NCBI GenBank assembly: GCA_034440575.1
Contig: JAOTOL010001568.1
Coordinates: 1-64,000 of the forward strand
Source of the DNA: Imbricaverruca yamaguchii
Taxonomy: Eukaryota > Arthropoda > Thecostraca > Neoverrucidae
DNA: 64,000 nucleotides
Reading direction: 5' to 3'
Position numbers and translations under genes: made by a program. How positions within the stretch are numbered: position 1 is the first letter of the stretch; every line of letters begins with the position of its first letter. Under the pieces are notes generated by a model, which had not been told where the DNA came from, made no database searches, and saw nothing but the letters and a program-made list of their open reading frames with translations. This document shows positions 39,401-45,400 of the stretch, one piece after another.

Positions 39401-42400
39401 CGCCACTGACACGTACATGCACTTGAAGCTGGTCGGCTTCCGAAGGTTCGATATGTAGAAGTGCCAATGGGGCCCCATCAGCTGGAACCAGTCACGATTG
39501 GGTAATGTTAGGTTACCTGGAGCTACAGTCACATCACTGCAGGATGACTTGACATGTACTAATGAAGTTGCAGTCGCATCACTGCGAGATTATATGACAA
39601 GTGCTGATGAAGCTGCAGTCACATCACTACAAGATGCTATGACATCTTGTAGCAAGATGTCACAAGATGCTAGGACACATCACAAGCACATAGGGCTGCA
39701 GCCACATCAATGCAAGATGATATCAATGCCTAAGGACGCATTGTCTGTGTTTATGATATAGCTTCAACACCGACAACCCACGCAGACCCTCCCCCCATTA
39801 TTATTACGAGTTGAACATTGCTATCAGCACCACTCCACATTCTGCCAGAAAGACATGATGAATACTTGGATAATGTCCTTCTCCATTTTCTCCCGGTATA
39901 TTCTGAGCTAGGTATGCAATTTCGCACTGTACTTAGGCGCGGCATAACGCATGGCAATTAAGCACGACATTCCGCCATCCTCAAACGCTACCACCAATTT
40001 GGAACATTTTTTGCCAATCTCTTTTGCTTGACCTTCGAAAAGGTGCTTCCACTGATCTGCCATGTCACACAAGATCACTACGCCACTACCAATCACCTGG
40101 CCATCGCTAATGCTTTAAAAAAAAAACAATTTCGGAGTTATTCTTCGGTATATTCGACTGTCTGGTGGACCATGCCGAAGCGCCACGGCTCTCGAATGCT
40201 GAGTCATCGCCAACATCACCGAAACCCTCTAGTCTCGCCGCAAGCTTCTCACGCGGACCAGCCGTGGCTGGACTCGACAATCCCGCAGTTCGTGATATTC
40301 AAACACACCATGCGCGATGAAGAGCAAAACAAGTCACACCGACTGGCCTATCGCTACCCTGTGGCGGATTTCAGCCTAGGGAAAAGAGGCAACGGCGCAC
40401 TCCACACCAACGACCTCCCAACCCGAATACCGAATGTCCCACCGCGACTTACCTGGATGTAAAGAGACCAGTCTGCGCTGCCAAGCTCCGGACCGGACTT
40501 CAGCAGCAGCAGCCGCTCGTACATCACTTGGTTGATCATGTCCAGCAACAGCAGCGTGTCGGTGTCGTTCCACAGGGCGACGCCTAGCGGCGGCCACTGG
40601 CACTGGCTGCGAGTCCAGGCGGACACCGGGTGGTCCGGGTGGCGCGCCTGCATCTCCTCCAGCACCAACTTGCTCAGCTTGCGGTACAGGCTGCCGAACG
40701 GTGCGGCACGTGTAAACGCAGGCAGGCAACACCACCGCAGTGACGTCACACTGGATGACGTCACGCCCGATGGCCAGCAACCTCACATTGAGACACTAGC
40801 CAGGAAGCGACCAGAATAGCATGACAATATTAAACAAAGCACAAACTCTAGACAGCTCCAGCTCCGAAGGAGAGCCAATCTTTCTTTTCGACGCATTCAA
40901 CAAACAGGCCACATAGGGGGCCTGCCAAAGGGATGTGGGCAAATCTCTCACACCAATTGGTAGAGGGGTGGACTTGGTACTCCTGCCGGCCGTGGGTTTC
41001 GAACCCACGATCTTACAATAAAAGGACAACGCCCTACCGACTAAGCCACCGCCACCCCTGCAGCTCTGAAGATTATCAAGGGTTTACCATGCCCTCGAAG
41101 TTATGCACCCAACGTTTTTGAGACTCCCGGTTAACACTGATGAATACCAGCTGATAATGGATAGACTTGGTTCGACACAACCACATCTTGCATGCAAAGG
41201 TGGAAAATCAACCGCATATGGTATTGCAAAATTGGTAATAAAATTGGTAATAAATCAACCACAATGGTATTGCAAAGTTTTTCTTCCGCCACTACTTCAC
41301 CTACTACCAACTCACCAGGACACCTACTGCACACACCACCAACTCACCAAGACACAGACAGACACACAGACATCCATCTCCTCCTGAGCATGTAAGGGAC
41401 ACCCGGGTGGGGCCGTCTCGTCCCCTAATGTTTTGGATGTAGGCTTGGGTTTGGAAGGATCGGGTGTGGTTGTTGAGGATTGAGGGTGCTAGGTTGTTGG
41501 ATAACGGAGTGTTCATGAGTTAGATGGCAAAAATAGCATTTCGCGCCCATAGCTTTGACACTTTTCCTCTGTTGACCCGATAAAACTGAGCGGACGAGTA
41601 GATCTGGGAAAGCTGGCCTACCTGCTCGTGACAGGGGAGGGCACATATCATCTACTCACTCCAACACCTACTGCACACGTCACATAATACACATACAAAC
41701 TACAACATACACCACCAACTCACCAGGACACCTACTGCATATACCACCTATTGCACACATCGCCTACCCACCAAGACACCTACTGCACACATCACCTACT
41801 CACCAGAACATCTACTATACACACCACCTATTGCACACATCACCTAATACACATGCCAACTACTACACACACCACCAACTCGCCAGGACACCTACTGCAC
41901 ATACCACCTACAAAACGTACCACATATTGCACACACCACCTACTGTATACACCACCAAGTTACCAAGACACATATTGTACACAGCACTGAGTCAGCAGGA
42001 CACATACTGTACACACCACCTACTCACCAGGACACCTGGCAGCCGACGGTCGGCCGCTGCTCGGGCAACATCCACTGGCTGGCAAGGAAGCAGGCCTCCA
42101 CCAAGTCAACTTGGTGCGGGGGCCGCTGCAGGAACTCGCCGATCATGGGCAGCAGGACGGACTCACGCTGTATCTCACGGTACAGCATCACCGCGTAGTA
42201 GCGACGCGACAGGTGGTTGGTTCTGTCGACAGGGCAGCATGCTGTCGCACATTGCCACCGGGTGCATATGGGAACAGCGATGGGACCAATGGTGGGCAGC
42301 CAATTATGGTATTACTCACACAATTTTACGCTTATAGTGACCCTAACACTGACATCTTAGCCGAGACTAGGGACAACAACGGTACCGACGAACCAGTTGG

Positions 42401-45400
42401 TGGCTACACAGCCAATATACCCATAATCAATGGTGTTACCATCATCCACATCAGCATAATGCTGTGTGTGTCGGAATTCATGGGTACTGGAGGTCAAGGG
42501 CTGGTAGCAGCTGCACGTGGCCTCTAGGGTCACGTGCCTCCGGCAACATCTCTCAGGACCATATGGACCATGTGAGACCCACGGGGTGAAAAAAAAGCCG
42601 ACATGGTTTGCGAGTGAAGTTATTCTCCTATACTGATTGATTTACGGAGCACATGTCTATTAAGGAGGAAGAAGAAGAGACACAGTGTCACTACCCAGTG
42701 GTTCTTTGCTCAAAGCTTCCGAAGGCCTTCGTGGATCATTCTTTGGCCATTCCTCGCCCGGCGCCCACCCACCCGCATGGCCGCACTGGGTGGATGATGT
42801 CCAGCAGAGCGTCGCGGTTGAACAGCATGCCGTGCGCGGGCACCAGGGCGCGGAAATCCTCCATGGCCGGGTCTGGCAGCCCGCGCAGCTGGTAGTAGCG
42901 GTCGGCCATCTTGTCCAGGGCGGTGGCGAGGTCGAGGCCGGCCGACACTCGGAAGGCGGCAGTCTCGCGCCAGCTGCCGCACTGCTGACGCATGCGCATC
43001 AGGCCAGGCAGGCTCGACGGCTGGATCAGACGCGGGTACCTGCAACAATGAGGCGCGACCATTACATAACAGAGCCACACGTATCTGCAACAATGGGGCG
43101 CGACCATTACATAACAGAGCCACACGTATCTGCAACAACGGGGCACGCCCAGTACAACACACACGGCGGCACGGCGGTGGTGACAGTCAGTCGAGCAGAG
43201 AGTCGTCCGCACAGAGTTCGGCAGCTGTTTGGGCTTCGGGGCGCATCGGCTTCATGGGTCACATAACGCCCATAACCCGCACCGATGTGCACAGGGTGCA
43301 CAGAGAAACGTTCTTTGAAGATAACATAGCATGATAGAAAAGCTAAAAAGAAAAAAAAGAGGCAATTTAGGCTGACTTCTATTTTAACACAAATGGGCAA
43401 GTGAGGAAAATGCCGTAATCAAGGAACAAACAATCCTCTGGTGCGCTTAATTCCATACCACGAGGATAAGCAACCGATGAAAGCTTCATCGAAATATCTC
43501 CACCCATCACAGCGTGATGACTGGCTGAGGTTTCGTTTTCCTCAAGTGAGATCCCTTGACCTCCTCTAACTCGGTGAACCTGGACGCCGTGACCTCAAAA
43601 GTTGCACAGACGCAAAATTGGTATGGAAAAGGCATGCGAAATTTCGTCGTGCTCCTGGGTGCCATTTCCCCCATCCAAGTGAACCCTATGGGTGGTAGCA
43701 GGCCAAGCACTAAGCTACAGGCACACTACACACTGAATGCACCTTTTGGCCCATATTATTGGTTTTGTGCTGTTTTATACATCTGTTATTTATTTTGTGT
43801 CCACTTCTTCAGACAGCTAACCCAAGCTTACAACAACATGCTTTCTCTTACATTTTTTTTATCACTGAGTACATACATACTTCTCCAAATACGAATAGAG
43901 TGGATAATCATCCCACCATGAATTCCTCGTTTTACACTTCTTGCAATATCCCTGTCTCCTCTTCTGTCTCTCTCTGCCTCTGCCTCTGTCTCTGTCTCTG
44001 TCTGTGTCTCTGTCTCTTGCAGTAATATCAAAATTATTATTATTCTTGTTGCTGATCAACTATATTGCAGAACTCAAGATGGAATATTTAGGTGGACCTA
44101 TGTAATACTTAATGTGTAGGTTTGCATTATTATTTAGAGAAGAATAAACCATTTTTCAAGATGGTTCATGTCCCAAAGAATGCATGCATGCTAGTTAGAA
44201 AAACTGGCTCTTCTTCACTTTTTGTCTCAATGTCCACTTATTCAATGTCCACTCAATGTCCACTTATTGTTCCCTTTGGAGTTTCAATGGTGATAATTGA
44301 CAATGAACCACATTGTAATAGTATTAAAGATTTACCAGAAATAGCAGACTCAGGAAAATGTGGTTCAGGCATTCATACTACTTATGGCTGTTCTGATGGC
44401 TACTTATGCCTACTACTTACTGCTGATAATGCAATTCTGTTGGCATGGATAGATTATCATGCCTAGAGAACTTGTTCACTATATTGCTTAATACACTCCA
44501 TGAGGGATATGGTAAACCATATCTTCTTTAATCATAACCTGATAATACATACTTTCCCATGTAATTGTGAATGGAAATGGCAATGTTTAGAAAATAATAC
44601 AAATATATAATATATACAAACATAATAAACAAACATATAATATAAAACATAAGGTACATACATCACTATGGAATTACATAACTAATCCAAAATGGAGGTC
44701 TTTTCAATGATGCATTGGGAAAAAGCATAATGGTTATGCACTGAAAAGCATTCATTGTTCTTCATGAAGTTCACATTTATTGAATGAACACCATACAGCC
44801 TTGAGGTATACAGAAGACAGATTGCTGTGATAAAGTCAGGTTGTTGGTGATTTACAGATCGATATAAATGTATGTTACAATATTACCAGTTTACAAATAC
44901 ATGTGTCCCACTATTAAACTAACACAACAAAAGTATGTTATTAGAGAACTCCACAAAAATGAGGATTTCATTATGACACACATTTCCACCACAACATATC
45001 ACAGCAAAGACATGTCTAAAACAACCTACACTGCATATATAGTGAGTATACTATAATCCTCAGCAGTGCACTGGTTCCATCTAGATTCAAATACACCATG
45101 AATAATGACTGGAACATATCTTCAAATTGCTGTATTAATCAGCTGAGAATGGTCAAGGTCAACCTTGAAACTGTTGGACACTAGTTTTGTGTGGTAAATG
45201 TGCAATGTAGTTTAATTTCTCATTTTTTTAGAATCTCTTTTCCAAGGCCATGTTTATGAAAGTAGATAGGCACTTCTGAAAACTCTTAATAACTTGTATC
45301 ACTGAATCACTGTGACTGTAAAGTGCTGAACATGATATAAACACTCATTTCCTCTACAAATGGATACTTTTTAGTTTGAAGGCAAAATAACACTTAAAAG

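What the first reader, a model, noticed from the sequence alone, without database searches (positions are those of the whole stretch)
41300..43150. Minisatellites whose repeat units contain F-box gene splice junctions
The exon 2 acceptor (43040, 43085, 43130) and the exon 3 donor (10-mer at 41310, 41718, 42022) are built into tandem repeats, as is the exon 7 donor. Other arrays start within about 35-45 bases of the exon 5, 6, 8 and 9 borders. Several units are 44-45 bp. This suggests that tandem arrays in this genome preferentially nucleate at splice sites and create many decoy sites. I recall exon/intron-border minisatellites ('mirages') from amphioxus, but cannot verify this here.
Basis: partly seen in the sequence, partly recalled or inferred. 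Interest (0 to 1): 0.8.

Follow-up and report, generated by a model that had tools for sequence, protein, structure and literature searches.

The report
Repeat arrays at barnacle-gene exon borders
In a gene most similar to goose-barnacle proteins, short tandem repeats have grown at exon-intron borders and copied the splice signals, much as described in lancelets; the repeats are really there and cluster near borders in this gene, but whether that holds across the genome could not be tested.

Summary
The minus strand carries an 11-exon FBXO21-like gene (686 codons; domains). Its four database hits are all from the goose barnacle Pollicipes (best 40% identity), so this is probably a barnacle or relative, not amphioxus. 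Three of 20 splice junctions lie inside minisatellites: exon 2 acceptor (45-bp unit), exon 3 donor (16/32/80-bp), exon 7 donor (45-bp). At exons 2 and 7 all three copies keep the splice signal. Three more minisatellites begin 36-41 bp from a junction. All 6 strong minisatellites in the gene lie within 41 bp of a junction (0.73 expected, 0 of 40,000 placements), but cut-offs were post hoc, and overlap alone, over all 16 arrays, is weak (3 versus 0.95, P 0.06). At exon 7 the unit is bounded by CGGCCC repeats 45 bp apart, suggesting microhomology or slippage duplication. Anatomically these match the lancelet 'mirages'; three barnacle or crustacean literature searches listed no such report. Genome-wide preference is untested: the genome search did not complete (15 tries). 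Best reading: mirage-type by-products of tandem duplication, tolerated because authentic sites are still used.

The parts
30086..47291 (-). FBXO21-like F-box/YccV gene, 11 exons: 47140-47291, 42773-43039, 42028-42222, 40453-40690, 39333-39481, 38271-38391, 37493-37693, 33399-33527, 31454-31588, 30773-30869, 30086-30459
   Evidence: Introns GT..AG, phases fit, 686 codons including stop; Pollicipes FBXO21-like hits; Pfam F-box-like 7.5e-13, YccV-like 3e-11. Exons set by hand; no RNA seen.
43036..43156 (-). 45-bp minisatellite holding the exon 2 acceptor; TTGTTGCAG ends at 43040 (authentic), 43085 and 43130
   Evidence: TRF 2.7 copies, 92%; units in register. Reaches only 4 nt into the exon.
41665..42035 (-). 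16/32/80-bp minisatellite starting at the exon 3 donor; two 16-mer types, such as TCCTG|GTGAGTAGGTG and GTGTGTGCAGTAGGTG, with variants
   Evidence: TRF, 16-mer register, donor matches. TRF span reaches 8 nt into the exon.
41292..41355 (-). Detached piece of the exon 3 array, 2.0 copies of 32 bp, with a further CCTGGTGAGT
   Evidence: TRF; BLAST to the main array, 74-100% over 14-53 bp
37377..37522 (-). 45-bp minisatellite holding the exon 7 donor; 30 nt of exon plus 15 nt of intron per unit; CAG|GTCTGT at 37493 (authentic), 37448 and 37403; CGGCCC at 37522, 37477, 37432 and 37387
   Evidence: TRF 3.2 copies, 97%; register; CGGCCC spacing and open frame
39521..39645 (-). 45-bp minisatellite, 39 bp upstream of the exon 5 acceptor
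   Evidence: TRF 2.8 copies, 77%; gap
38432..38476 (-). (AGAC)n microsatellite, 40 bp upstream of the exon 6 acceptor
   Evidence: TRF; gap
32607..33362 (-). 44-bp minisatellite, 17 copies, starting 36 bp after the exon 8 donor
   Evidence: TRF 94%; gap
31630..32003 (-). 74-bp minisatellite, 41 bp upstream of the exon 9 acceptor
   Evidence: TRF 5.2 copies, 87%; gap

Best explanation
These are mirage-type minisatellites: by-products of ordinary short tandem duplication (replication slippage or microhomology repair), followed by copy-number turnover, that began at or beside exon borders of a probable barnacle FBXO21-like gene. Coding constraint stops the arrays from spreading into exons, so the repeat edge sits at the border and the splice signal is copied with the intronic flank. 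The authentic, exon-proximal sites are still used, so the arrays are tolerated. Shown: array anatomy, splice motifs in the copies, the CGGCCC repeats 45 bp apart that bound the exon 7 unit, clustering near splice sites in this gene, and the fit of the exon-proximal sites to the protein alignment. Inferred: the duplication mechanism, that the authentic sites are the ones spliced, and the lack of function.
For: TRF arrays and unit registers. The exon 7 array is three 45-bp copies plus a fourth CGGCCC at the intronic end, spaced exactly 45 bp, as expected if a single ancestral copy lay between two CGGCCC repeats. Joining exon 7 at the first donor gives RPMYTRRLLQ|RFLADQG against RPMYTRRLLQ|QFVQANG in P0001, with no extra residues. 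The exon 1-2 join gives GFYSRYPRL against GFKSRYPRL in P0001 and P0002. The stretch across the exon 3-4 join aligns without gaps to P0001 and P0003, with one gap to P0002. All 6 strong minisatellites lie within 41 bp of a junction. The same anatomy, with splicing reported undisturbed, is described in lancelet genes (passages of PMC3087553 and PMC3902484).
Against: The bounding microhomology was looked for and found only at exon 7; period-45 edge tracks were printed for exons 2, 5 and 7 only, and the exon 3, 8 and 9 arrays were not examined for it. Overlap alone does not exceed GC-matched chance at the 5% level (3 of 6 versus 1.31, P 0.078 and 0.091), nor does overlap of all 16 arrays (P 0.06). 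The exon 2 array reaches only 4 nt into the exon, so 'spanning' the border is marginal there. The decoy acceptors at exon 2 share TTGTTGCAG with the authentic one and lie upstream of it (strength not scored), and at exon 7 the three donors score alike (5.6, the weakest of the ten authentic donors), so undisturbed splicing is not obvious. No RNA and no second haplotype were available, and an assembly error cannot be excluded.
Confidence: 0.6

Rival explanations
1. Composition and history alone: the genome is rich in GC-rich minisatellites, exon flanks are often GC-richer than intron interiors, and several introns may once have been so short that any array in them lay close to a splice site; later growth gave today's lengths.
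For: 8 of the 20 100-bp intron flanks have GC 0.59-0.72 (the other 12: 0.40-0.56), while introns 1 and 7 average 0.37 and 0.40. Intron 8 is 73% tandem repeat, so its two arrays can hardly avoid its ends. The overlap excess weakens under GC matching (P 0.078 and 0.091). 10 of 17 strong minisatellites of the window lie outside the gene.
Against: Nearness within 41 bp survives GC matching (6 of 6 versus 1.99 and 2.04, 0 of 3,000 each) and exclusion of AT-rich intron 1 (0.97, 0 of 20,000). Splice motifs themselves lie inside three arrays. Intron history was not tested.
Confidence: 0.3
2. Active nucleation: transcription or splicing (R-loops at donors, nicks, or AG/GT microhomology) makes splice sites mutational hotspots for tandem duplication in this genome.
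For: Clustering in one gene; three junctions within arrays; a similar pattern in several lancelet genes.
Against: One gene only; donor-like motifs in the exon 3 array exceed shuffles at one of five thresholds (27 versus 19.4 at 3 or more, P 0.014) and not at 4, 5, 6 or 7 (P 0.31, 0.15, 0.06, 0.73); at exon 7 the bounding microhomology is CGGCCC, not the splice motif; a 63-bp tandem duplication lies inside an open reading frame elsewhere.
Confidence: 0.15
3. Functional alternative splicing: at exons 2 and 7 the decoys lie 45 and 90 nt away in an open frame, so using them would add 15 or 30 residues and make a length-variable protein.
For: All four extensions (two at exon 2, two at exon 7) read through without a stop; the copies keep the splice motif.
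Against: A 3n unit open in frame at both sites has a chance of a few per cent by my own rough estimate (no call). The four exon 3 decoy donors tested all run into a stop at codon 206. The Pollicipes proteins show no insertion at these places.
Confidence: 0.06
4. Chance coincidence in one gene, or assembly error in repeats.
For: Overlap alone P 0.06 over all 16 arrays and P 0.10-0.23 for distances of 10-36 bp; cut-offs post hoc; no reads available.
Against: 0 of 40,000 placements; the exon 3, 5 and 9 arrays carry diverged copies (TRF matches 73, 77 and 87%), unlike simple assembly stutter.
Confidence: 0.12

Closest known systems
Amphioxus 'mirages' (tandem repeats at exon-intron borders of Adh3, globins BflGb6 and BflGb9, troponin C; imperfect ones in PGBD5; PMC3087553 and PMC3902484, passages read)
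   Same: Minisatellite-like units that include the exon edge, the AG/GT signal and flanking intron; both donors and acceptors affected; unit lengths of the reported order (Adh3 10-72 bp, globins 150-160 bp); decoy signals kept in copies
   Different: Here in a probable barnacle; three junctions in one gene plus three minisatellites beginning 36-41 bp away; exonic share is small at exons 2 and 3; no transcript or polymorphism data
Intron gain by tandem genomic duplication of AGGT (review PMC3443670, passages read)
   Same: Exon 7 units repeat CAG|GT, the proto-splice core, at 45-bp spacing
   Different: No new intron is evident; the copies lie at the edge of an intron already needed for the protein
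Ordinary intronic minisatellites
   Same: Unit length and copy number
   Different: Position: all six strong ones in this gene lie within 41 bp of a junction

Membership tests
Mirage minisatellites | Tandem minisatellite units | tested here: met
   TRF
Mirage minisatellites | Unit spans an exon-intron border | tested here: met
   Exon 7 clearly (30 exonic nt); exon 3 by 8 nt; exon 2 marginally (4 nt)
Mirage minisatellites | Copies carry AG/GT splice signals | tested here: met
   3 of 3 copies at exon 2 and at exon 7; some of the exon 3 units
Mirage minisatellites | Regular splicing undisturbed | not testable with these tools
   No RNA; only indirect support from the protein alignment
Mirage minisatellites | Copy-number instability between haplotypes or somatic cells | not testable with these tools
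   One haplotype only
Mirage minisatellites | Found in cephalochordates (taxon of the reports seen, not a mechanism) | tested here: not met
   All 4 protein hits are Pollicipes pollicipes, among the 7,997 candidates scored
Intron gain by AGGT tandem duplication | A new intron between duplicated AGGT sites | tested here: inconclusive
   AGGT is duplicated at exon 7, but no extra intron is needed for the protein; intron ages not known

The most novel reading that the evidence does not exclude
Barnacles, independently of lancelets, have a splicing- or transcription-coupled mutational process that repeatedly seeds minisatellites at exon borders throughout the genome, leaving splice sites inside unstable arrays and offering a route to new introns and in-frame protein length variants.
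Probability: 0.14. Interest if true: 0.75.

Novelty: new member of a known kind. Interest (0 to 1): 0.42.

Why it matters
If mirages also occur in a crustacean, exon-border minisatellites are not a lancelet oddity and can be studied in a second, distant lineage as raw material for intron gain, splice-site competition and length polymorphism. The gene offers three testable junctions, two of them with in-frame 45-bp decoys that RNA-seq would resolve at once.

Tried and rejected
Genome-wide test: the genome search on the window's own assembly was sent in the same form 15 times and never answered; it remains undone. 'The window is amphioxus' was rejected. 'The 44-45-bp arrays are copies of one repeat' was rejected: BLAST among the seven arrays matched only the two exon 3 pieces. 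Structured RNA in 30000-47500: no Rfam match at gathering scores. A second gene as an independent test: a PAN-like ORF at 19231-19524 (below the curated cut-off) followed by an ORF that I took by eye for C-type-lectin-like; Pfam did not confirm the second, and its 63-bp array lies inside the open frame. 'Dense decoys at exon 3' was weakened by shuffles. Arrays dropped before the minisatellite counts: from 16 arrays, the (AGAC)n, 7 weaker ones and the (AT)n at 32242-32435, which TRF also lists with periods 10 and 14 and score 346 and which I left out as a dinucleotide run; it lies 653 bp from the nearest junction, and counting it would make 6 of 7. The piece 41292-41355 (601 bp from a junction) was counted apart in one version (6 of 7) and as part of the exon 3 array in the other (6 of 6).

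Full report
The gene. The minus strand of the window carries an FBXO21-like gene, 47291 down to 30086, with 11 exons. All ten introns are GT..AG, the phases fit, and the joined frame of 686 codons (stop included) is open. Exon 1 matches Pfam F-box-like (7.5e-13) and exons 2-11 YccV-like (3e-11). A protein search gave 4 hits among the 7,997 candidates scored, all from Pollicipes pollicipes; the best, an FBXO21-like protein, is 40% identical over 86% of the query (39% in the multiple alignment). tblastn of these proteins back to the window supports most exons; exons 6 and 8 have no hit of their own below E 1 and rest on frame, phase and the multiple alignment. The source is therefore probably a barnacle or close relative; the species is not known. 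The exon borders rest on frame, consensus and this alignment, not on RNA.

The arrays at junctions. Of 20 splice junctions, three lie in minisatellites. The exon 2 acceptor array (43036-43156, 45 bp) has TTGTTGCAG three times; the copy furthest from the exon is more diverged. The exon 7 donor array (37377-37522, 45 bp) has CAG|GTCTGT three times, and 30 nt of the exon belong to the unit. CGGCCC occurs at 37522, 37477, 37432 and 37387, exactly 45 bp apart, the last at the intronic edge. This is what a duplication between two 6-bp direct repeats straddling the donor would leave; no other array was examined in this way. The exon 3 donor array (41665-42035, with a detached piece at 41292-41355) reads as 16-mers of two types, one carrying the donor TCCTG|GTGAGT. 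CCTGGTGAGT recurs at exon-end positions 41724 and 41316, and TTCTGGTGAGT at 41804.

The arrays close to junctions. Three further minisatellites begin 39 bp (exon 5 acceptor), 36 bp (exon 8 donor) and 41 bp (exon 9 acceptor) away, and an AGAC microsatellite begins 40 bp from the exon 6 acceptor.

Statistics. Random placement of all 16 TRF arrays within the gene, allowing at most 40 nt of exon, gives overlap 0.95 expected versus 3 observed (P 0.06), within 45 bp 2.11 versus 7 (P 0.001), and P 0.11, 0.17, 0.23 and 0.10 at 10, 20, 30 and 36 bp, 0.027 at 100 bp. For minisatellites of period 10 or more and score 90 or more, the (AT)n run left out, 6 of 6 (6 of 7 if the detached piece counts apart) lie within 41 bp; 0.73 (0.85) are expected and none of 40,000 placements reaches it; overlap 3 of 6 versus 0.37, P 0.003. 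Without AT-rich intron 1: 0.97 expected, 0 of 20,000. With GC matching: 1.99 and 2.04 expected, 0 of 3,000 each, but overlap alone P 0.078 and 0.091, within 20 bp P 0.17 and 0.20, and within 100 bp P about 0.003. Score, period and distance cut-offs were set after seeing the data, so these values are descriptive. Intron 8 is 73% tandem repeat, so its two arrays are not independent evidence.

Decoys. With a donor matrix recalled from memory, the exon 3 array has 27 donor-like 9-mers scoring 3 or more versus 19.4 in shuffles (P 0.014), 15 versus 13.1 at 4 (P 0.31), 11 versus 8.1 at 5 (P 0.15), 9 versus 5.2 at 6 (P 0.06) and 2 versus 2.6 at 7 (P 0.73). The exon 7 donor scores 5.6 in all three copies, the lowest of the ten authentic donors. 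Decoys at exons 2 and 7 would add 45 or 90 nt in an open frame; the four exon 3 decoys tested all meet a stop at codon 206. The exon-proximal exon 7 site fits Pollicipes without extra residues.

What is known. 'Mirages', tandem repeats of exon-intron borders, are reported in lancelet Adh3, globin and troponin C genes, with similar imperfect repeats in PGBD5, both borders affected and splicing reported as undisturbed (passages of PMC3087553 and PMC3902484). Searches for barnacle + minisatellite + splice and barnacle genome + tandem repeat + intron found no paper; crustacea + minisatellite + splice site + intron listed 5, none of which, from title and start of abstract, reports this in a crustacean. 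The library holds only open-licence papers, so absence from print is not established.

Limits. By one search's table (period 10 or more, score 90 or more, overlapping rows merged by eye, the (AT)n run left out) 17 strong minisatellites are in the window, 10 of them outside this gene, so tandem arrays are common here in general.

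Noticed in passing
window 3319-16243 and 55077-64000: Large inverted repeat flanking the gene, aligned blocks 92-98% identical, including the 13-bp and 82-bp arrays on both sides; the right arm runs to the window's end. Could be a duplication or a haplotype/assembly feature.
   Followed up: partly
window 6775-11481: About 4.7 kb present in the left arm only: the aligned blocks end at 6774 and resume at 11482, while in the right arm they overlap by 5 bp (60227-60231). It holds a GDSL-like ORF (7433-8266) and an endonuclease-reverse transcriptase ORF (8322-11192), so it looks like a LINE insertion after the duplication, with the empty site in the other arm.
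   Followed up: partly
window 18820-19524, minus strand: PAN-like ORF (Pfam PAN_1, E 0.0012, below the curated cut-off) followed by an ORF with a 63-bp in-frame tandem duplication, 21 residues twice. It looks C-type-lectin-like by eye, but Pfam gave no match.
   Followed up: partly
window 425-1636: Reverse transcriptase ORF (Pfam RVT_1, 8.4e-28), a further retroelement fragment.
   Followed up: no
window 40984-41056, minus strand: tRNA-Lys (TTT) call by ARAGORN inside intron 3; may be a tRNA-derived SINE rather than a gene.
   Followed up: no
window 31251-31287 and 31334-31370: 37-bp direct repeat, 89% identical, in intron 9.
   Followed up: no
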